Source: Thysanoteuthis rhombus (taxonomy: Eukaryota; Mollusca; Cephalopoda; Oegopsida; Thysanoteuthidae). Taken from it: DNA of 64,000 bases. Position numbers and translations under genes: made by a program. Below are positions 36,416 to 46,632 of this stretch, piece after piece (the first letter of the stretch is position 1; each line of letters starts with the position of its first letter). The stretch is from assembly GCA_963457665.1 (NCBI GenBank), contig OY735231.1, positions 41,725,524 to 41,789,523 of the forward strand, written 5' to 3'. The notes beneath the pieces were generated by a model. The model was not told the origin of the DNA and did no database searches. It saw nothing but the letters and a program-made list of their open reading frames with translations.

Positions 36416-37164
36416 TTAATTCATTTTATACTTGAACTACTTATTAAACAGAATCAGTTTTCAGAGAATAAGAAAATTGATGACTTGATGGGATTAGAAA
36501 ATTTTCTATTCATTTTTTCTCTATTATCAGAAAATTTCACAGTTATTCTAAAAGAAGTCTGATCCTACCTGGACTAACAAAGAATGTGCAAAAAACCTGC
36601 ATGGACCCCAAAATATTCTAAATTCAACCACCCAAGCACTGGAAGATGCTAAATTAGCCGTGGAAGATGTTATATTCTCACGTCATTGTTGAAAGATATT
36701 AGATTTGGAATATCAGAGGATCTATTTCAGGCATCTTCCAGGTACTCTAGCTTGGAGTTTTCATGTAAAATTTTCTGATGAGTGACTTCTAAAATTCATA
36801 GGTTCAAAAGTGCAAATTTTCTGATTACACCATATTCAATATTGTGTAGAAATAGTTACATTTTATCTTTATTTCTATTAATATTCGGACCATCCTCATC
36901 TTTATTTAACCAACGAGGTTATATTGACCGCACAATGAATGTATGAAAAACAGCCAAGATGAGGATGGTCCAAATATTAATAGAAATAATAATACCTCAT
37001 CTCAAAAATTCAGAGATTTCATCTTTGCTTTGATTGAATTAAATTTTAATTATGGTATAATCAAAAAATTTGCTCTTTTGACTTGAATCAATTTTGTAGT
37101 CGTGATTCTACGTTTGATCCAATTCGTAAACAAGAAATTGTTTTGTTTTTGTCTTTTGGTTCAG
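36416..37164 (+). other. Intron sequence upstream of the main exon, with a foldback MITE and a splice acceptor
   Basis: AT-rich sequence without ORFs. It holds the palindromic MITE at 36860-37020 and ends in the pyrimidine tract and TTCAG (37161-37164) that define the 37165 exon. The presence of a strong acceptor just before the ATG implies at least one upstream exon, coding or 5' UTR. Confidence 0.6.
36860..37020. mobile_element. Repeat family 2, copy 3 (palindromic MITE)
   Basis: Arms ATTTCTATTAATATTCGGACCATCCTCATCTT (36871-36902) and its inverse AAGATGAGGATGGTCC.AATATTAATAGAAAT (36957-36987) enclose about 55 bp. The flank AATACCTCATCTCAAAAATTCAGAGA matches the end of the 7.6-kb copy. It sits about 145 bp before the 37165 exon. 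Confidence 0.75.
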
Positions 37165-37640
37165 CATAATGAATGATCAAATATATGATCATTGTTTCAA
37201 CCAAGAAGATGACATCAGTATCTTGCCAGGTGAAGATGATGTGAATGCTGTGTCTCCCCATGTTATCCCTTACTTCAACTTGACTGCTTCCAGGCACCAG
37301 CTGCCAAGTACGAGTGGAATTACATCAATGGAGGCACTACGCAATGCTTACGAGGAATTGAAAAAAAAATATAATGACCTCAACTTAAAGTACCAAAGCC
37401 TTTGTACGTTTGTCCGGAAAAATATGAAACCTGAATTCAACCCCGACGAACTGCCTTCAGGTTCGCACTCTCTTGAAGAAAAAAACAAAACACTGGAAAT
37501 GAGTCGGAAGGATGAAATAGAAAAACTCCACAATGCTATTCTTCAACTAAACCATGAACTTTCGGAAGAGAAATCTAAAAACATTAAACTCCAGGTGCAA
37601 ATTAGCAGTTACAAAGAAATGTCACATTCGACCAGTGAAG
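37165..37640 (+). CDS. Coding exon of the TBK1-adaptor-like gene: EDDISIL motif, TBD-like helix, coiled coil
   Basis: The acceptor is a T-rich tract ending TTGGTTCAG at 37164, and the donor is GAAG|GTAATG at 37641. The exon holds 4 nt before the ATG at 37169 and ends with one base of a split Gly codon (phase 1). Residues 1-157 include the acidic EDDISIL motif (13-19), a Pro/Ser-rich spacer, the helix at 56-88 whose pattern A-Y-x-E-L-K...L-x-L...R-K matches the TBK1/IKKe-binding helix of AZI2, and a charged coiled coil at 100-150. If an upstream coding exon is used, the first base plus two donor-side bases form a codon, followed by ATA ATG, so the frame stays open through the acceptor. Confidence 0.85.
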
Positions 37641-39638
37641 GTAATGTACTTTTATATTAATCAACGCTATCCACAACAGTCCAGCTTAATTATTGTCACT
37701 AGGTGTAGGTTATTCATGTGTACTAACATTCATATGTATCTATCTGGACTTTGCCCACCCCTTATCTTTCATAGTAGAAACTTCAAATTTGCACATTGTG
37801 TAGGGAAGATATTTTTGTTTTTGAAAATTCCCCTCAAGTAGGGTTTTAGTGGGGGTTGAATTTGCAAAGTAAATTTCTACTAAATTGATCACTAGTCTTA
37901 TACCCGCTTGTGTTTTGAAAATTCAGACCTTTCGTAGTAATCACGGGACAACAATTTGCAAGAGAAGTAACTTATTCTTTGATCACCTCTTTTTCCAACA
38001 TTTTAATTGATCACCCCCAACCCCAACATATATGGGTGATGGTGATTCATAATTTCCTTTGGAATGCTAGTTCTTAGGATGCAATCTGTTTACAAACTAC
38101 AGTCTTAGTAATTGTTTGCTAGCTACGACTAAGAATTTGGGATGTATACCATATTCCTTCGTGAATGACACAAAAAATTTTGTATCCAAATCAGAGTGAA
38201 AATACTTCATTGTACAAATTTCATGTTACTAAAATTCATTGTACAAATTTCATATGTTACTAGAATAAATCTCCACTAAGAAATATATTCTACCTATGTG
38301 GCTACCAAACTTTAAAAAATGAAATTATTTAGGCAAAACATTTCAGGGGTCAGTGAACAGAACTTTTTTTTTTATTAGTTTGAGCTTTTCTCCTTGGGAG
38401 CTTAGATATAGGGTTGAAATAATAAACCATGATGATTGAGTGCCACAAAATTTATCTCCTCTCTGTGAAATACGTACAACACAAGCGCCCAAGAAATAAC
38501 AAAAATAAATTAAAATAATCAAATAAAAAAAAATAACAAAATTCAAAAACAATGGGTTCAGATTGAGCTCACAAGGTGTAAAAGATGGGTATCTTTGTTG
38601 TTAATTCTTTTATTTTGTTTAATAAAATAGAAATAATTACCATTGCAACATTACACAACATAAAAATATTGTATAGCTGCACTATTGCAGGACACAAATT
38701 TGGAATTTCAAAGCAGAAAAACAATTGGAACTGTTGTGCCAAATTGAGAACCCATGTTATAGAAGAGGCTACAACCTTATAGCTGTTTTTTACCTTTAAA
38801 TCAAATACTTGTATTATACAAAAAGAAATATGGTAAGTTCATCTGATGATTTCACATAGGTCAAATGCAACAAGTAAGAAGGATATTATGTAATTGGAAA
38901 ATACCAATCACCTTTGCCCAGTGGTTGAGAGCTCATACTAAAGACCTTTAGAATGGTACTCTATGAATTTCCACTTAGCACTTGACTCAAAGACTAATAT
39001 TGAAGAACCTCTCCCCAAGGCTAAGGGGTTACAGCCTAATCACATACCCTATTCCTCGTAAGATCACCAAAGTTGAGCAACCTCAAGCCTGGTCAATAAC
39101 TAGATGGGTGACCACTGAGGAATATCAGGTGCCATAAGCAGAACAAAGCTTTGATAGGCCTGGCAAGCCCGAAGCGGGTCTTTGTAACAATGGTGCACCT
39201 ATCCCCATGAAACTCTTGATGACACTATGAGCTGGGAACAATGATACATGTGTATAATTAGTATATTTGCCAAAGCAGAGAAACTTGTTTTATTCCAACT
39301 TTTATTCTTTTCCATTACTGGTATAAATACTTTTTTAAAACTAGAAACCGTTTGGAGGTACATATTGTCAGCGGGGAGTAATTGTGCAAGGATCTACCCA
39401 AAAATTTAATCAGTTCTTCCCTAACCTATTGTCTACCCTTCCAAAAAATAGCATGTGAACAAGCATAACATTTGGTGACGTGTGTTTTAGATATAAAAGT
39501 ACAATGTAGGGTAGATAATTGAGCCTGGATCTGCTCCAAACTTTAATCAGTTCCCTCATAGCCTATTGTCCACACTTCTACAGAATTTCATTGAAATTCA
39601 TTGAGAACTTTTTGAGATGTTTTGTGGACAGTCATGAG

Positions 39639-39707
<69 letters not shown>

Positions 39708-42700
39708 CATCAACTCTAGAAAACCTCACATTTTTGACACCAATTAAACTAAAACTTTACATAATGATATTCCCATCTCTAAAAAGTTCAGACAGAAAAT
39801 CTATTAATTCAGTACTTTCAGAGATATCATGTAGATAAATAGATAAACAGACAGACAAACCGACACAACAAAAACATATACCTCTTTCGAATTTTGTTGA
39901 CAGAGGTGAAACATATCTCTTAATGTCATAAACCACTGGAAACTGTTTTTGATTGACAGTAGAACTCTTCTGTCACGTGAAACAAAGTTTGTTAAACTAG
40001 TTATGTCAGAAAAAATGAAAAATTAATTAAAATCTTTACCATAAGTTGAAAGAGACAACTTTAATCAGTAGTTATTCTTCTTGTTAGTAACAGAGAAATT
40101 AACATCGAAATATCCTTATGTGAAAGTAAGAGTTTATTTAAATTTTCAGTTTCTTTGGATTGATTCTTTGTTTTTCATGAATTTCACAAAAAAATTGGGG
40201 CTCAACTTCTGGGTCACTTTGTTGAGGCAGCATCTGCAACTAAAATGACAATCCATATATGTAATCAACATATATGCAAATTTCTTCTCAATTTGTCTGT
40301 TTGGGCTCAAATGGGATGTTCTGAGTGGCTTACTCACCTACTTCTGACATAGCAATGAATGCTCTATCAAAGAAAGACTTCATATCTGATCATACATTAA
40401 AAGAGCTTGATTTTAGAAGAGACTTGGAAAAAACTTGAAATTAGGATTCTTTAACTATTGAAAATGAATTACCTGATAAAAAGCTGTTTATTACTATTCT
40501 GTACATAAATAACCCCATCATTTTTTATAGCAACAAATAAACTATCTGTAATTTTAGTCTTGAGTTTCAGAAATATCTTTAAGTATTTACACAATTCTAT
40601 GTATACCTGTTGCTCTTTCAGTCAGGTAAATTTGCCAAAACCAAATCAATTAGTCCTCCTTTATATCACAAATGTCAGGGTCCATTAAGATAACTGCATT
40701 ATAGCTGACCTGCAGATAATTCTAAGTACAACCTCTCATCTGAACAAAGGTGTTGTTTTGATTGGAAAATCAAAGAAATTTTGCATAAAACAACAGGTAA
40801 TAATGTTATTTGATTACAAATTGAAGAAATTTAAGGTTTCAATCATATTAAGATCTTTTGATGAAATCATGTTTTTATTCATGATGGGCAATAATACATC
40901 CAGGTAAAAATGTTGGAGTCCACCAATCATAATATCTTAATCTTAATATTACAAACCTTACTATATTGGAGGATACCTGGACTACTTTTGAAAAGGAGTA
41001 TTGGGACAGTTTTTTGTACTAGTGATAAAAAGCAACATTTAATATGATAGGGTAAAACTAGTTATTAAATGATGGAAAACAAATCCAAAAACCTCGACTT
41101 TAAGCTATGACCCATTTGTATACTCTACACTAGGCAGATACCCTCTACTTTTTGACCACACTATAAAACGTGCATATGTATGTACACATTTATATATTAT
41201 CATCATCATCATTTTCATCAGGCTTCCAACATCCGTCATTCAACATAAATCTCTTCCAAGGTCCACCAGATCTCTTGTCCGTAGGCATCTCCTGAACTTG
41301 TTTAAATGGCGCTATCTGGTTTGTTTTTTTTTGCTTGCTACAATCTCACATAATATCTATTGGGAATTTAGATCTATTAGAAACTGTCTATGAAAACTGT
41401 CAAATAGGTTTCTTCAGTTTTTAAGTTGGTCTGGATAGCTGGCTATTACTATGGCACAATGAAGCTAGAGGGTCAAATAGTTAAACATTTACTCCTTACT
41501 ATGTTGAGAAAAAACTTATTTTCTGTTTATTTTTTCAATTATTTTGGCTGTAATCAAATTGATTCTAAGTTTCATCCATATTTATTTTTAATTATCTCAG
41601 TTGATGAAGTATTTAAAATCTTTATTATTTTTTGGGCTACTATTTACATTCAGTTCAATTGTTGCTTTTTATGGCAACACGGCTAAATTCTGCCTTGGTA
41701 CTTTTCTGCAGTGAATGGATATATTAACATTGTGGATCAGAATAAAGAATAACTTCCAGGTGAGAATCAAACTCACAACCCTGGATGCTGAAGAGTGGCT
41801 TGCTTAACATGTGACTGTTCTCACCACTGAACTACTGGAATTTAGTGAAAAGTTTCAGTCCAAATCAAACCATTAAATTTTTGGTGGTAAGAACAGTTAT
41901 GCGTTAATCAAACAAACCTCCAGCTTGAAGGGTCATCAGTTCAATTCTTACCTAGGACTCATTCTTTATTCCAATCTACATTTATTTATCTACTAACTGC
42001 TGAAGAGTACCCAGCCTGAGTGAATTTGCAATAAAAAGCTACAACAATGATGATAAAGGTAAATACTAGCAGTGACCAATATTGATTCATATTTAATGTT
42101 AAAATTAATATTTATCCTCAAGTTTTTTATTTGTTTTTTGCTTTTCATATTGATGAATCCAGACTCGGTAGGAGTAGCTATAAGTGTCCTGAGGGATACA
42201 TTTGTTTTTCAGCCAACCTTTGAGAGCATTCACTGATGGAGCTTCAATTGTCTCCTGACTTGAACCATTCCTAGTTGATGTTACCCTGGCTGACTTTCTT
42301 AGTCCAGGCTGGTGTTGCACATGCAGTTTCCTTTTATGACCCCTAGTCCCTGGGTCTGGTGTTCTTTTTATCATACTATTTCCAAAGACCTGACATTATT
42401 TCTCATGCAACACTTCATCAATACCTCTGATAATTTTATAGGTCTGGATGAGATCAGCATGTTGATAGCCTGTAGTTACAAGCTAGCTAAATGTTCAGAG
42501 AAAGAAAGATATGAAGTGCCTCGTACCTGTTCAAGAGCAACTTTATCTATCTTTAGTTTTGAGACCAGATCACCAAAGTGTATTCTAAATGCAGTCAAGT
42601 GATGCTTTTGTAGAGATACATAAAGGACCCCCTTGTCCAAAGCCTCATATGTGTGCTTTATTGCTCATTTAGGTTTGTTGACTTGAGCTTGTCTGTGCCC

Positions 42701-45700
42701 TGTGAAAGTCAGCTTATTGTCTATTCTGACTCCCAAGTTCTTCTCTTCTTCAACAGCCTCTAGAGAGTGTATTGAAGCATGTACTTCTTTCATCTTATAT
42801 TTCCAATAGATTAGAAAATCTTTGATAAAAAAACCAATGACCTTTTTTTCTGCTTATATTTTCCAAACAGGGTTGCTAGATTTAGGAAAAGGGGAGATAA
42901 TCCGGGTTTCATCTCAGAGACTTACCCAATACAGGAGACAGAGGTTCAGTATCAGCCTCTTGAGGCAGTCCTACTTCAAAAGGCTAATATGAACGTCTGC
43001 ATCCAGACTCAATCAATGCCTGTGTTGGGTTGATTTCTGAGACATAGCTTGGATTATTTCCTCGTCTGGCCAAATTGATACTATTGTTTTGAATCAATTT
43101 ATTTTGTCCACAAATATATCTCTTTTTTTTTCCTTTCTCCCAGGCTCAAGTGACAAATCATTAACAGTTCTTGAAGACCTTACGAAACATGTTGAAATTT
43201 TGGAGAAATCTATCGAGTTCCACAAGGTTATCATCAGCAAACAATGTAAGTATTTCTTAAAGATTTGTAGAAAATAACTAGTATCTACCCATGTTATGTG
43301 TACATCTTTTCTCAATCTGATTCACCCTTTGTAATTAATAGAAAAACAATCACTGATTTTACTAGCACATGAACTAAGTAGTATGAAGTAAAATATCATT
43401 CTTTCTGAATGACAATGTTTCAAGAGCAAGTATGTAGCATGAGCATTATTGATTAAATTACAATTTTTTTTTTTTTTTTATTTTTTATTAAAGCCATTAA
43501 AGAATTTCTAGCAGATACTTTTTTTTCTGTAAAACCGAAGAGTTTATGTAATTGTTTGGAACTGGGACTAAAATATTTTATAGAGATTCCACTAAATTAA
43601 TCAAGTATTTTGTGAATATTAGGGTACTCTCAAATTCTGGGCTATTCATGTAACTTCGTGATGTTAATGACCCAACCCTGTTGTACCTGGAGTAGGCCTA
43701 GCCACCAAAATCTGTGGATTTCTGAAACTCCAAACACCCTCTTGAGGTCATGATGCTCAATTGGTCTGTATTTTTCCTAATCTCATAGAAAAGTACTTAC
43801 TTTACATATACTAGCCAATTGGGTGGTATTCAGCAGGTTCCTCCAGAAGGCCCCACCCATCACTCTCCAATTGGGTCTGTATAGTGGGTAACTGAAAACA
43901 CCCTCTATACTATGTATATGCATAATGAACAGAAAATAAGGGTTCAGTTTAGCATTACAATTACATTGCAAATAAAAAATCCCCCCCTCCTAAAAGTCTT
44001 TTTTTTTTAAAATGTTGGTAAAACCAAATAGTCCAAGTTTTCCCCATTACTTTACATCACATTACATTTCCATTATGTATGCATACTAAGTTTGGTATGC
44101 CAATGGACAGAAAGTAAGGGTTCAGTTTTGCATTATTGTTACATGTAACAAGTTAGTGTAGAAATACACATGAAAATATAAATAATTCTGAAAACTAACA
44201 ATGTAAACACACTGGCCAGCAATCAGAATGAAGGATTAGTTAAGGGTATATTTTGATTTCTGTCTACCATGCAGGCATTGGTAGTTCACTCGGTAAGAGC
44301 AGACTCAGCTAAAGAGCTCCCCCATTAAGAAAGTAAAATCAGACCGGGCTAAAAACTTAGTTAACAAATTGTCAATTTCTGTATCAGCTACATGTAAATA
44401 GAACTGCCCCTTAGAACCCTTGGAAAAAAGAATTTTGGAGGAAAATCAAATAGTTCAAGTTCTTCCTCTAGGTCTACTAAGTATGCATACCAAATTTGGT
44501 TGAGCTGCACCAATGTTTAAGCGAGAGGGACACAGTGATTAACTTGTTTTTTTTGTTTTGTTTTTTTATATATATATAGTGATGATTCAGATTTTATTGC
44601 AAAGCAGTTCAATTTGTCTTCACATAAAATCAATAGGATCAGAATTATTATTATATTTCAGTTTTTACATTTTTGGGGGTCACAAAAAATGCTAAATAAG
44701 AAAAAAATTGTTGTATTACCTCTGTCCCATTATAGTTGTTACATTTGCATATATATTTCATGCACTAAATATAACATCAATCATGGGACAGAGGTAGCAC
44801 ACAGAGCAATCATTAGTGACAAACACTCCCAGAAAATGATTATATTATCTAAACATATAATAGGTATATATGCCAATTGGTTTGTCAATTTACGTCAGAG
44901 TCAGGGTAGGAGTGGGAGAATGATGTTTAGACCTCCCGCCTTTTTTTGTGTGTGTTCTCTTCTGCCTTTCTAGCTGGCTACTGCCATGTGTTGTTGCCTT
45001 TCCACCTACGTGGTGTGACAGGGGATGCTATATAACTGTGGCTTGCTGGAGACGGGCTGAGTGGTAGGGTGAAAATTAAAAGAAAAGAAAAATGTTTCTT
45101 TGAAAAGTAAAACTGATTTTGTTTCTGCTTAATCCATTTGAAAATCGATAAAAAACAACTTCTGTTGAATGAATCAGATCTGAACCCTTGGAATCACACT
45201 TCTTTATAAAGAATGTCCTTCTCAATAAATACATTTGTTCTAAAATATATATTTGCTCAGTTTATCCATGCTTGAATGATCCCATCATTTTTAATCGGTA
45301 ATATACTAGTTATATCATAATGATTTACTTTATTTTCCACCTTATTTCATTTTTGCTTTTTACTTATTGGCGTGGTAATTAATCTGGAAATGATAGCATT
45401 ACTTACATTGTTTAAAGTAAAATTAATGTAAATAGCCATAGAAGCACAGACCATGGAATCAACCACCCAAGCTCAATCTTCGGTCACTGCTGTTTAGGTT
45501 CACATCACACTAAGGCCCTTTGAAAAGGCATGAATCCATCTCTCCTCCTTCTACCTATGGATAAAATAGCTGAACATATCTGACTCTCTAGCATTTGGAA
45601 GGCAACCGGTCTAGGAGAAAGACGTCTCTAATACTTTCTAACCAGGGAGTGAAGCCCCTCTCGAGGTGGTTTGACATCCTCCTGGCAGCTCCCGCAGCCA

Positions 45701-46632
45701 AGCTGATGCCAAACGTTTCACTCTCAGCTTTCCTCTGGACTACAACAGCAAGACCGAGAGGGAGATTCTGATAATTGGGTATCCTTTGATCTCCATACGC
45801 TCTGCCTAGGCCTGTGTCCTGATGGGGAAGTTCTATTGTCTGTAGATACAGAACAGAGACCATCCAATGTAAATGAATGACAACCATTAAAGCACTTTTT
45901 TCCTGTTATTGCTATAAAACATCTGTTGTTTTTTCAATTCAAATTTTCTCTATTTCAGTACCCCATTCCAGGCTACCTACCCAGTCTCTTTTTGGAAAGC
46001 CTGATTTTATTTCCCAAAGAAAACAGTCTGAACATGATGAACTGTCATCTTTAGGCAATAAGCCCGTTCACGGTCCAATGAAAGCATTATTAGCAACAGG
46101 CACTGTCGTAACGGAGAAAGTACAGAATTCAACTTGGCAACAACCTAAATCAGAAGATGCAAAAACAAGATCAAGTATTATAAACTTGAAGAATATACGA
46201 CTAAAACAAGAAAAACAAGATAAAACACATACAACATTTGCATCTCCTACACATCAGCACACAAATACTCTTTCATCATCATCATCGTCCACACCACAAT
46301 CATCATCAACCACTACTACCAACATTGCACCCAATGCCCTTGTAAGGGAAAAGGATATTCCATTTTTGAATAATGCAGAGGCTATTTCACCTGCTAATGA
46401 CTCCGAACAGTCTTTGTGTGTATCAGAAATGCTTTGCCCAATCTGTGAAAAACCCTTTACTGATTTAAGCAAGTTCCAAGAACACGTGTTTGACTGTAAA
46501 ACTGATCCATTAGATCGAAGTTGTCCCGTTTGCATGAAGAACTTTAAAAATGCACCCCAAGAGGTATTTGAGGAACATGTTAATACACACTTTGACCAAC
46601 CAGGTGATGATTTTGATGTTTTGAATTTCTAA
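37169..46632 (+). CDS. TBK1-adaptor-like protein (NAP1/SINTBAD-type N-terminus, TAX1BP1-type C-terminal zinc fingers), spliced
   Basis: The coding sequence joins 37169-37640, 43144-43245 and 45959-46632 (1248 nt including stop, 415 residues). Seen in the protein: EDDISIL at residues 13-19; an AYEELKKK...LRK-type helix at 56-88; further coiled coil at about 100-150 and 164-190; a Ser/Thr/Gln-rich low-complexity stretch at about 290-325; zinc finger 1 (C351, C354, H367, C371); zinc finger 2 (C380, C383, H398, H402); and DDFDVLNF at the C-terminus. Known: NAP1/AZI2 and SINTBAD/TBKBP1 carry an EDDI(C/S)IL sequence near residue 10 and a TBK1/IKKe-binding helix; TAX1BP1 ends in two ubiquitin-binding zinc fingers followed by a short tail. 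Inferred role: a cytosolic adaptor linking ubiquitinated cargo to TBK1 and the autophagy machinery. No SKICH domain is seen. Start chosen at the ATG four bases after a strong acceptor, which puts the motif at the same distance from Met as in vertebrate homologues; a 5' UTR intron is then implied. Family call is good, exact orthology is not settled. Confidence 0.85.
37800..38045. repeat. Dispersed repeat family C
   Basis: TTTTTGAAAATTCCCCTCAAGTAGGG..TTTAGTGGGGGTTGAATTTGCAA...CTTGTGTTTTGAAAATTCAGACCTTT...AATTTGCAAGAGAAGTAACTTATTCTTTGATCACCTC...AATTGATCACCCCCA follows the same order as at 62640-63035 and 54980-55215. Confidence 0.7.
39033..39140 (+). mobile_element. 5S rRNA-derived sequence (SINE3-type head or 5S pseudogene)
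   Basis: GATCACCAAAGTTGAGCAACCTCAAGCCTGGTCAATAACTAGATGGGTGACCACTGAGGAATATCAGGTGCCATAAGC aligns to the animal 5S rRNA internal promoter, covering A box, intermediate element and C box, to its 3' end. The 5' part GCCTAATCACATACCCTATTCCTCGT also aligns but lacks about a dozen bases of the loop A/B region. The substitutions and deletion rule out a functional 5S gene. A non-5S tail continues to about 39245, as in 5S-derived SINEs. Confidence 0.75.
39340..39905. repeat. Dispersed repeat family B, with embedded TA array
   Basis: Two consecutive partial units (GGAGTAATTGTGCAAGGATCTACCC and GGTAGATAATTGAGCCTGGATCTGC), each followed by TTTAATCAGTTC..CCTATTGTC. CATTGAGAACTTTTTGAGATGTTTTGTGGACAGTCATGAG leads into the TA array, and a further piece lies at 39780-39905. 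Confidence 0.7.
39641..39705. repeat. (TA)n microsatellite in intron
   Basis: About 32 TA units inside the family-B copy. Confidence 0.95.
41330..41690. repeat. Dispersed repeat family C (5' part)
   Basis: TATTAGAAACTGTCTATGAAAACTGTCAAATAGGTTTCTTCAGTTTTTAAGTTGGTCTGGATAGCTGGCTAT...GAAGCTAGAGGGTCAAATAGTTAAACATTTACTCC matches 54830-54960. Confidence 0.6.
41734..41980. mobile_element. Inverted pair of tRNA-like elements inside the intron
   Basis: The left element (minus strand, 41752-41838) reads CAGTAGTTCAGTGGTGAGAACAG then GGTTGTGAGTTTGATTCTCACCTGG. The right element (plus strand, 41878-41957) reads TGGTGGTAAGAACAGTTATG then GGTCATCAGTTCAATTCTTACCTAGG. The outer flanks are also inverted (GGATCAGAATAAAGAAT versus ATTCTTTATTCCAATC). 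The arms are more diverged than at 7.8 kb. Confidence 0.65.
42868..43080. mobile_element. Foldback MITE family 1, copy 5, next to exon 43144
   Basis: CAGGGTTGCTAGATTTAGG...GGGGAGATAATCCGGGTTTCATCTCAGAGACTTACCCAATACAGG, then a spacer, then CAATGCCTGTGTTGGGTTGATTTCTGAGACATAGCTTGGATTATTTCC...CTGGCCAAATT. It ends 63 bp upstream of the coding exon. Confidence 0.8.
43144..43245 (+). CDS. Coding exon of the TBK1-adaptor-like gene: short coiled-coil cassette (102 nt)
   Basis: The acceptor is a long pyrimidine tract ending CTCCCAG at 43143 and the donor is CAAT|GTAAGT at 43246. The exon is exactly 34 codons long and enters and leaves in phase 1, so skipping it would keep the frame. It encodes residues 158-191, with a heptad-like run of Leu/Val/Ile (LTVLEDLTKHVEILEKSIEF) that extends the coiled coil. 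Its amino-acid character and both splice sites support it as a real exon although it is far too short to stand out as an ORF. Confidence 0.85.
44272..44345 (+). mobile_element. tRNA-like SINE fragment
   Basis: GGCATTGGTAGTTCACTCGGTAAGAGCAGACTCAGC is a good tRNA 5'-half/A-box match. The following sequence lacks a clear B box. Confidence 0.45.
44717..44796. repeat. 80-bp hairpin with perfect 14-bp ends
   Basis: TACCTCTGTCCCAT and its exact reverse complement ATGGGACAGAGGTA bound an 80-bp unit, with further pairing inside (GTTGTTACATTT against AAATATAACATC). Looks like a tiny MITE. Confidence 0.75.
45959..46632 (+). CDS. Terminal coding exon of the TBK1-adaptor-like gene: disordered linker, two UBZ-like zinc fingers, LIR-like tail
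   Basis: The acceptor TTTTCTCTATTTCAG ends at 45958. The single T carried over from exon 3 joins TA to give Leu192, then PHSRLP. The open frame continues upstream of the acceptor, but that part is intron. The linker has many Ser/Thr/Gln residues, with TCA/ACA codon runs near 46275-46320. Finger 1 is CPxCxxxFx7FxxHxxxC, a C2HC finger; finger 2 is CPxCxxxFx7VFxxHxxxH, a C2H2 finger ending in THFDQ exactly as in TAX1BP1. Both fit the UBZ1-type ubiquitin-binding finger. The stop TAA is at 46630-46632. This is the best conserved part of the gene. Confidence 0.92.

What the first reader, a model, noticed from the sequence alone, without database searches (positions are those of the whole stretch)
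37169..46632. A single compact protein combines a NAP1/SINTBAD-type N-terminus with the TAX1BP1-type zinc-finger pair
In vertebrates, TBK1 recruitment (NAP1/AZI2, SINTBAD/TBKBP1, TANK) and ubiquitin binding through twin C-terminal zinc fingers (TAX1BP1) sit in different proteins that bind one another. Here the three exons give one 415-residue chain with EDDISIL, a TBK1-binding-like helix, coiled coil, two fingers and no SKICH domain. This could be an ancestral all-in-one adaptor or a lineage-specific fusion. SINTBAD and TANK also end in one finger, so the architecture may reflect the common ancestor of these families.
Basis: partly seen in the sequence, partly recalled or inferred. Interest (0 to 1): 0.85.

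Follow-up and report, generated by a model that had tools for sequence, protein, structure and literature searches.

The report
Cephalopod NAP1/SINTBAD-like zinc-finger autophagy adaptor
A real gene, also present in octopus, encodes a protein that begins like the human autophagy helpers NAP1 and SINTBAD and ends in two zinc fingers of the kind that read ubiquitin, which may show what these helpers looked like outside vertebrates.

Summary
The gene is real. Exons 37169-37640, 43144-43245 and 45959-46632 splice at GT/AG sites into one 415-residue frame. Three full-length relatives exist: two unnamed (64% and 55% identity, short contigs) and an uncharacterized Octopus protein (37%). So the exons belong together. 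No SKICH domain was found in it.

The N-terminus matches NAP1/SINTBAD: the EDDISIL motif (FIP200-binding in SINTBAD) plus a helix with S and A at the positions of NAP1's SKICH contacts S37/A44. Profile probability is 80-90%; 0 of 300 column shuffles reach the score. That is not supported: Pfam TBD does not match, although it finds recalled human TBDs at 58-81 bits. Finger 2 keeps TAX1BP1's two tested ubiquitin-contact residues; finger 1 does not.

The same genome holds a separate TAX1BP1-type gene (SKICH, coiled coil, twin fingers) 1.4 Mb away, and TBK1-type exons. So the protein does not replace the two-protein system. It looks like an invertebrate NAP1/SINTBAD-like co-receptor with a ubiquitin-type finger pair. 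Human SINTBAD (recalled) ends in one finger of this family, so this is a variant of a known kind. All binding, including TBK1 binding, is unproven.

The parts
37169..37640 (+). coding exon 1 (residues 1-157 and first base of codon 158): N-terminal module and first two helices
   Evidence: open frame, donor GTAATG at 37641; conserved in 3 of 3 relatives
43144..43245 (+). coding exon 2 (102 bases, helix about residues 158-192)
   Evidence: AG acceptor before 43144, GTAAGT donor after 43245; aligned in all 4 family members. Not a TBD by sequence: NAP1 TBD scores 7.7 here, below the mean of shuffled maxima, 11.8
45959..46632 (+). coding exon 3: low-complexity linker and two zinc fingers, stop codon
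   Evidence: AG acceptor, open frame to stop at 46632; PF18112 match 21.2 bits, cut-off 23.2
37205..37225 (+). EDDISIL, residues 13-19; di-aliphatic I18-L19, proposed FIP200-binding motif
   Evidence: DDISI invariant in 4 of 4 family members; SINTBAD residues 5-15 and its di-aliphatic motif (mutant IL11-12SS) are needed for FIP200 binding in PMC6477152 (passages)
37325..37402 (+). helix residues 53-78, proposed SKICH-binding helix (S53 and A60 at the positions of NAP1 S37 and A44)
   Evidence: best of all ungapped offsets for PDB-confirmed NAP1 33-75; S53 and A60 invariant in 4 of 4; NAP1 S37K/A44E is the NDP52-binding mutant in PMC11564117 (passages)
37502..37609 (+). coiled coil, residues 112-147
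   Evidence: inside helix 99-147 of the P0001 model, P0001 numbering
46435..46497 (+). zinc finger 1, C351-C354-H367-C371 (C2HC)
   Evidence: ligands invariant in 4 of 4; TAX1BP1 contacts Q743/E747 not kept (L361/Q365)
46522..46590 (+). zinc finger 2, C380-C383-H398-H402 (C2H2, UBZ type)
   Evidence: TAX1BP1 UBZ structures are the top sequence hits of the whole protein (2m7q E 1.9e-6); Q392 and E396 match TAX1BP1 Q770 and E774 and are invariant in 4 of 4

Best explanation
The gene encodes a cephalopod selective-autophagy adaptor that works like vertebrate NAP1 and SINTBAD. Proposed mechanism: the N-terminal DDISIL motif holds FIP200 of the autophagy-initiating ULK complex; the helix at residues 53-78 docks on the SKICH domain of the separate TAX1BP1-type receptor found in the same genome; the coiled coil dimerises the protein; and finger 2 lets it bind ubiquitin on cargo itself, which vertebrate NAP1/SINTBAD are reported not to do. 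Shown here: the gene, its conservation, and the N-terminal and finger similarities. Inferred: every binding event. TBK1 recruitment, the central task of NAP1/SINTBAD, is plausible but no TBK1-binding domain was recognised. I therefore call it NAP1/SINTBAD-like and do not file it as a member.
For: Gene model. Three full-length relatives with the same order of parts; the longest contigs of two of them are 1562 and 1911 bases although the gene spans 9.5 kb here, so they are probably transcripts. Profile comparison of the N-terminus (3 family members) with human NAP1+SINTBAD (partly recalled): probability 80.5, score 35.6; 0 of 150 column shuffles and 0 of 150 heptad-keeping shuffles reach it. With the Octopus sequence added, probability 89.7. 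Without the motif: score 22.6, 0 of 100 heptad-keeping shuffles, maximum 17.1. Functional residues of NAP1/SINTBAD from papers: I11/L12, S37/A44. Fingers: TAX1BP1 UBZ; ubiquitin contacts Q770/E774 kept in finger 2. SKICH exon in the genome keeps GASTPFQF, the stretch that holds NDP52's NAP1-binding A119 (residue numbering recalled). TBK1-type ULD exons present.
Against: No Pfam TBD in the product and none over the cut-off in the genome (best 20.1 bits, E 1.65). In PMC11564117 NAP1 tethered to mitochondria still worked without FIP200 or NDP52 binding but not without TBK1 binding, so the parts recognised here are the dispensable ones in that assay and the needed one is missing. Part of the NAP1/SINTBAD comparison rests on recalled human sequence; with hhalign's context option off the probability is 68.7. 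EDDISIL is a short motif that could converge, and without it the probability drops to 11.6. The helix matches NAP1's TBD even better than NAP1 33-75 in ungapped scoring, its 26-residue core is reached by 20 of 2000 heptad-keeping shuffles, and SINTBAD's recalled N-terminal helix matches only weakly (40 of 2000 plain shuffles reach it). Finger 1 lacks TAX1BP1's contacts; the position of NDP52 D439, needed for ubiquitin binding, is E397 here but K, Q and V in the three relatives (register from recalled NDP52). One relative is named (Octopus), two are unnamed; no bivalve, annelid or deuterostome intermediate was identified.
Confidence: 0.55

Rival explanations
1. All-in-one TBK1 adaptor: the helix at 53-88 is itself a (diverged) TBK1-binding domain placed right after the FIP200 motif, so one chain links TBK1, FIP200 and ubiquitin.
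For: Ungapped scoring of the PDB-confirmed NAP1 TBD (215-250) is best at residue 53 (42.0; 0 of 2000 plain, 1 of 2000 heptad-keeping and 1 of 2000 hydrophobicity-keeping shuffles; 38.0 with 0, 3 and 0 of 2000 when Octopus is added). Equivalents of L226 and L233 are L64 and L71, invariant in 4 of 4. NAP1 must bind TBK1 to act when tethered.
Against: Pfam TBD does not match though it finds recalled human TBDs at 58.5-81 bits. Recalled SINTBAD and TANK TBDs score like shuffles. Profile comparison gives probability of about 1-2%. L247's equivalent is N85, and the position after the FIP200 motif is that of the SKICH-binding helix.
Confidence: 0.22
2. A TAX1BP1/CALCOCO paralogue that lost its SKICH exons and kept coiled coil and twin fingers; the NAP1-like N-terminus is convergence.
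For: Twin C-terminal fingers as in TAX1BP1; a TAX1BP1-type gene lies 1.4 Mb away on the same contig; CALCOCO genes are known to vary at their C-terminal end (PMC4599966 section 6).
Against: The N-terminus matches NAP1/SINTBAD above shuffles; finger spacing and finger 1 type (C2HC) differ from TAX1BP1; SINTBAD (recalled) also ends in a PF18112 finger.
Confidence: 0.15
3. Lineage-specific fusion of a NAP1-like gene with a copy of TAX1BP1's last exon, in the cephalopod ancestor.
For: Both fingers sit in one exon here and in one open frame in the neighbouring TAX1BP1-type gene; the two genes are close on one contig.
Against: SINTBAD and TANK already have a C-terminal finger (recalled sequences), so no fusion is needed.
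Confidence: 0.05

Closest known systems
SINTBAD (TBKBP1) and NAP1 (AZI2), vertebrate TBK1 adaptors / cargo co-receptors
   Same: N-terminal (E)DDI.IL motif; following helix with S and A at NAP1's SKICH-contact positions; coiled coil; linker; SINTBAD (recalled sequence) also ends in a PF18112 finger
   Different: No recognisable TBD; two fingers instead of one (SINTBAD) or none (NAP1; both recalled); finger 2 has the TAX1BP1 contacts Q and E, which the recalled SINTBAD and TANK fingers lack
TAX1BP1 / NDP52 / CALCOCO1
   Same: Twin C-terminal UBZ-type fingers, coiled coil; finger 2 contacts Q770/E774 kept
   Different: No SKICH domain; NAP1-like N-terminus; finger 1 is C2HC with other residues; exons of a separate gene of this kind exist in the same genome
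TANK
   Same: TBK1 adaptor family, one C-terminal finger (15.2 bits to PF18112, below its cut-off, recalled sequence)
   Different: TBD recognised at 81 bits in TANK (recalled), not here; TANK did not bind FIP200 in PMC6477152 (passages)
Optineurin / NEMO C-terminal finger
   Different: weak scores, tied with or behind many ordinary C2H2 fingers; rest of protein not compared

Membership tests
NAP1/SINTBAD (AZI2/TBKBP1) | N-terminal di-aliphatic FIP200-binding motif | tested here: met
   EDDISIL at 13-19, DDISI in 4 of 4; by sequence only, binding not tested
NAP1/SINTBAD (AZI2/TBKBP1) | SKICH-binding helix near the N-terminus (NAP1 33-75, S37/A44) | tested here: met
   by sequence only: best ungapped offset of NAP1 33-75 is residue 49 (33.7; 3 of 2000 plain, 6 of 2000 heptad-keeping, 0 of 2000 hydrophobicity-keeping shuffles reach it; with Octopus 32.5; 2, 9 and 1 of 2000); hhalign. 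The recalled SINTBAD helix matches only weakly
NAP1/SINTBAD/TANK | TBK1-binding domain, Pfam TBD PF12845 | tested here: not met
   absent from all 21 families listed for the window protein at E<=10; not in the shown part of the lists for P0001 and P0002 (25 of 40 families shown) and P0003 (25 of 46 shown); control: recalled human TBDs 58.5-81 bits
NAP1/SINTBAD/TANK | binds TBK1 C-terminal domain | not testable with these tools
   needs a complex prediction or a binding assay
TAX1BP1/NDP52/CALCOCO | N-terminal SKICH domain | tested here: not met
   no PF17751 among the 21 families listed for the product; 6 whole-genome matches, none in the window
TAX1BP1/NDP52/CALCOCO | C-terminal fingers of the autophagy-receptor family (PF18112) | tested here: met
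   21.2 bits in the window protein (below the cut-off of 23.2), 24.6 in Octopus (over it), best E among the first three members 7.3e-8; TAX1BP1 UBZ E 1.9e-6
UBZ finger of TAX1BP1 type | ubiquitin-contact residues (Q743/E747 in finger 1, Q770/E774 in finger 2) | tested here: inconclusive
   finger 2: Q392/E396 kept in 4 of 4; finger 1: L361/Q365, not kept (register by the zinc-binding histidine, numbering from the recalled length of TAX1BP1)

The most novel reading that the evidence does not exclude
NAP1/SINTBAD/TANK adaptors and SKICH receptors (TAX1BP1/NDP52) are old sister families that arose by a local duplication of one coiled-coil, twin-UBZ gene; the cephalopod protein keeps the ancestral state of the adaptor side, namely a self-sufficient cargo receptor that reads ubiquitin, FIP200 and the SKICH receptor at once, and vertebrate NAP1/SINTBAD became mere co-receptors by losing ubiquitin binding and gaining or sharpening a TBK1-binding domain.
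Probability: 0.2. Interest if true: 0.75.

Novelty: new variant of a known kind. Interest (0 to 1): 0.48.

Why it matters
A mollusc immunome study found no SINTBAD or TANK in Aplysia; the 'NAP1' it lists is spelled out there as Nck-associated protein 1 (PMC9334734, passages). The mitophagy literature describes NAP1/SINTBAD as cargo-receptor-like except that they lack ubiquitin binding (PMC11564117 section 9). A molluscan protein with the NAP1/SINTBAD N-terminus and a ubiquitin-type finger would, if the homology holds, date the adaptor/receptor pair to before the protostome-deuterostome split and give a natural test of whether a co-receptor with its own ubiquitin reader works as a full receptor. 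It also suggests why domain searches miss such genes: the TBD model does not match and the finger scores near its cut-off.

Tried and rejected
TBD in exon 2 (residues 159-194): I first suspected it from position and hydrophobic pattern; NAP1 TBD scores only 7.7 there, below the shuffle mean of 11.8. Rejected.

Conserved linkage with human 17q21.32: human TBKBP1 and CALCOCO2 are, from memory, about 1.1 Mb apart near HOXB, PNPO and CDK5RAP3. Here the two genes are 1.4 Mb apart on contig C36, but the best Hox-type homeodomains lie on C8 (C36 has one weaker homeodomain at 30.5 Mb), PNPO on C14 and CDK5RAP3 on C31. So shared synteny is not supported; the closeness stays unexplained (about 0.1% by chance for a pre-named pair, my arithmetic, judged after the fact).

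Wider family search: three protein searches; the two full-length queries reached two relatives and the masked one a third. PF18112 whole-genome search at E<=0.001 found nothing, not even the window's own fingers, as expected for a 27-residue model in 2.7 Gb. LIR-like [WFY]..[LIV] matches: those conserved in all four lie in the helix (A-Y-E-E-L and the next heptad); near the C-terminus only the window protein (FDVL) and P0002 (YEII) have one. None convincing.

Literature: searches for this gene or for invertebrate NAP1/SINTBAD listed 1 of 1, 15 of 70, 2 of 3, 8 of 671 and 12 of 253 papers; no listed title or abstract start describes it. Only the held open library was searched and the rest of those lists was not seen.
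Full report
What is there. The window lies at C36:41725524-41789523 of a 2.73-Gb assembly in 514 contigs. Exons 37169-37640, 43144-43245 and 45959-46632 on the plus strand are bounded by GT/AG sites with pyrimidine-rich acceptors, both introns are in phase 1, and the joined frame has 415 codons and a stop. A possible further acceptor (ends at 37164) lies just before the ATG, so 5' untranslated exons are likely; a coding exon upstream cannot be ruled out from this sequence alone, but all three relatives begin at the corresponding methionine.

Is it real? Protein searches found P0001 (397 aa, 64% identity, 99% of the query covered), P0002 (423 aa, 55%, 100%) and, with an X-masked query, P0003 (386 aa), named 'Hypothetical predicted protein' of Octopus vulgaris and 'uncharacterized protein LOC115210851'. 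P0001 and P0002 are unnamed; their longest contigs are 1562 and 1911 bases, while the gene here spans 9.5 kb, so they are most likely transcripts. Identity to the window protein in alignment A5 is 69, 58 and 37%. Invariant in 4 of 4 are DDISI, EDDV, GITSM.AL..AYEELKKK.N.LN...Q.L, the eight zinc ligands, and HFD near the end. At 37% identity to the Octopus protein it is probably not an octopus of that genus; a squid or cuttlefish is a guess.

N-terminal module. In SINTBAD, residues 5-15 and a di-aliphatic motif (mutant IL11-12SS) are needed for FIP200 binding (PMC6477152, passages). In NAP1 the binding mutants used were S37K/A44E for NDP52, I11/L12 for FIP200 and L226Q/L233Q for TBK1 (PMC11564117, passages); NDP52 and TBK1 bind AZI2 residues 33-75 and 215-255 (PMC11490886, passages). 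In the window protein EDDISIL is at 13-19, and the best ungapped placement of PDB-confirmed NAP1 33-75 is at residue 49, which puts S53 on S37 and A60 on A44 (score 33.7; 3 of 2000 plain, 6 of 2000 heptad-keeping and 0 of 2000 hydrophobicity-keeping shuffles reach it; for the core 37-62 the counts are 0, 20 and 0). With Octopus added the full piece scores 32.5 (2, 9 and 1 of 2000). hhalign of the three-member family against NAP1+SINTBAD N-termini (beyond the PDB part recalled) gives probability 80.5 and score 35.6, or 68.7 with context off; 0 of 150 column shuffles and 0 of 150 heptad-keeping shuffles reach 35.6, maximum 20.6. With Octopus added the probability is 89.7 (no shuffles of that version). 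Without the motif the score is 22.6 and the probability 11.6, against a maximum score of 17.1 in 100 heptad-keeping shuffles; the motif part alone gives probability 85.5. Against this reading: the recalled SINTBAD helix by itself matches only weakly (11.0; 40 of 2000 plain and 159 of 2000 heptad-keeping shuffles).

The TBK1-binding domain. In ungapped scoring the NAP1 TBD fits it even better than NAP1 33-75 does (42.0 at residue 53; 0 of 2000 plain, 1 of 2000 heptad-keeping, 1 of 2000 hydrophobicity-keeping shuffles), with L64 and L71 on L226 and L233. But SINTBAD and TANK TBDs (recalled) score like shuffles, hhalign to the three TBDs gives about 1-2% (2 of 150 and 1 of 150 shuffles reach the score), and Pfam TBD does not list the window protein at all although it finds the three recalled human TBDs at 71.6, 58.5 and 81.0 bits. 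NAP1 itself has two AY-type helices, so a match to both is not surprising. Section 8 of PMC5027247 names L226, L233, L244 and L247 of NAP1 at the interface; L247 has N85 here. I count the TBD as tested and not met, and TBK1 recruitment as open. In the whole genome no TBD reaches the cut-off (best 20.1 bits, E 1.65), so no better candidate was found either.

The fingers. The window protein scores 21.2 bits to PF18112 (cut-off 23.2), Octopus 24.6; the best E among the first three members is 7.3e-8. TAX1BP1 UBZ structures are the top PDB sequence hits (2m7q 1.9e-6; 1.2e-6 with the profile). In TAX1BP1 the ubiquitin-contact residues tested by mutation are Q743/E747 and Q770/E774 (PMC4599966, passages). 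Counting from the first zinc-binding histidine, finger 2 has Q392 and E396 on Q770 and E774, in 4 of 4 members; finger 1 has L361 and Q365 and is C2HC. Against ubiquitin binding: NDP52 D439, whose change to R abolishes it (PMC8017197, passages), corresponds by my recalled register to E397 here and to K, Q and V in the relatives; TAX1BP1 itself has R there. So ubiquitin binding by finger 2 is likely but unproven, and by finger 1 doubtful. The recalled SINTBAD finger matches PF18112 at 26.1 bits (over the cut-off) and TANK at 15.2 (below it); in my recalled sequences neither has Q and E at those positions.

The rest of the system. SKICH (PF17751) matches 1-70 and 69-103 lie at C36:43153604 and 43166631 (E 6e-17 and 0.003). 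The second is closest to human TAX1BP1 SKICH (E 7e-11) and keeps GASTPFQF; NDP52 A119, needed for SINTBAD/NAP1 binding (PMC6477152, passages), lies in this stretch by my recalled numbering. Coiled-coil-like open frames follow and a twin-finger exon stands at C36:43215198. I read this as one TAX1BP1/CALCOCO-type gene, 1.4 Mb from the window gene; that its exons form one gene is inference. The leech has one CALCOCO gene with two fingers (PMC4599966 section 6). TBK1-type ULD exons are on C43 (two near-identical inverted places, 47.1 bits each) and C18 (30.3 bits, just under the cut-off of 31); kinase domains were not searched. So the animal appears to have receptor, kinase and this adaptor as separate genes.

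What a mechanism must face. In PMC11564117 (section 9) NAP1 or SINTBAD tethered to mitochondria was enough to start mitophagy; NAP1 mutants without NDP52 or FIP200 binding still worked, the mutant without TBK1 binding did not. A NAP1-like protein that brings itself to ubiquitin would not need the tether, but it should still need TBK1. Whether this protein meets TBK1 directly, through a diverged helix, or through its SKICH partner cannot be decided from sequence.

Conclusion. The finding is a real, conserved gene, uncharacterized in Octopus, for which I found no description. It works, most likely, like NAP1/SINTBAD with an added or retained ubiquitin-type finger pair. It is not TAX1BP1. The claim of a TBK1-binding domain is not supported, and the 'all-in-one' reading is weakened by the separate SKICH receptor. 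PMC9334734 (passages) reports no SINTBAD or TANK in Aplysia. Five searches of the open library (of four of them only part of the list was shown) listed no paper on an invertebrate NAP1/SINTBAD of this form; two key papers I asked for are not held.

Noticed in passing
L028 and L029 (G000:C43:34335079-34335261 minus and 34410406-34410588 plus): Two TBK1 ubiquitin-like-domain exons with equal scores (47.1 bits each) in opposite orientation 75 kb apart, each with a weak (21-bit) match to the model's first part nearby; a recent inverted duplication of a TBK1-type gene or an assembly artefact.
   Followed up: no
L001, L003, L014 (G000:C36:43153604-43215340): TAX1BP1/CALCOCO-type gene with SKICH, coiled-coil-like and twin-finger exons lies 1.4 Mb from the window gene on the same contig.
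   Followed up: partly
L002, L004 (G000:C47:34722532-34725550): A second SKICH-containing gene; no twin-finger exon in the 80 kb scanned; possibly an INPP5K-type phosphatase (guess from recall).
   Followed up: no
G000:C8:14391768-21392420: Nine Antennapedia-type homeodomain places spread over about 7 Mb on one strand, as in dispersed cephalopod Hox clusters (general knowledge).
   Followed up: no
window 41752-41841 (minus strand): tRNA-like element in intron 1 (Rfam tRNA 35.6 bits) that ARAGORN does not call; probably a tRNA-derived repeat.
   Followed up: no
window 39000-39200: Sequence that resembles 5S rRNA by eye (from recall); Rfam did not list it at its gathering score. Possibly a 5S-derived repeat.
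   Followed up: no
window 46024-46053 (residues 214-223): Conserved stretch Q.EH.EL..L in 4 of 4 family members, between coiled coil and low-complexity linker; function unknown.
   Followed up: no
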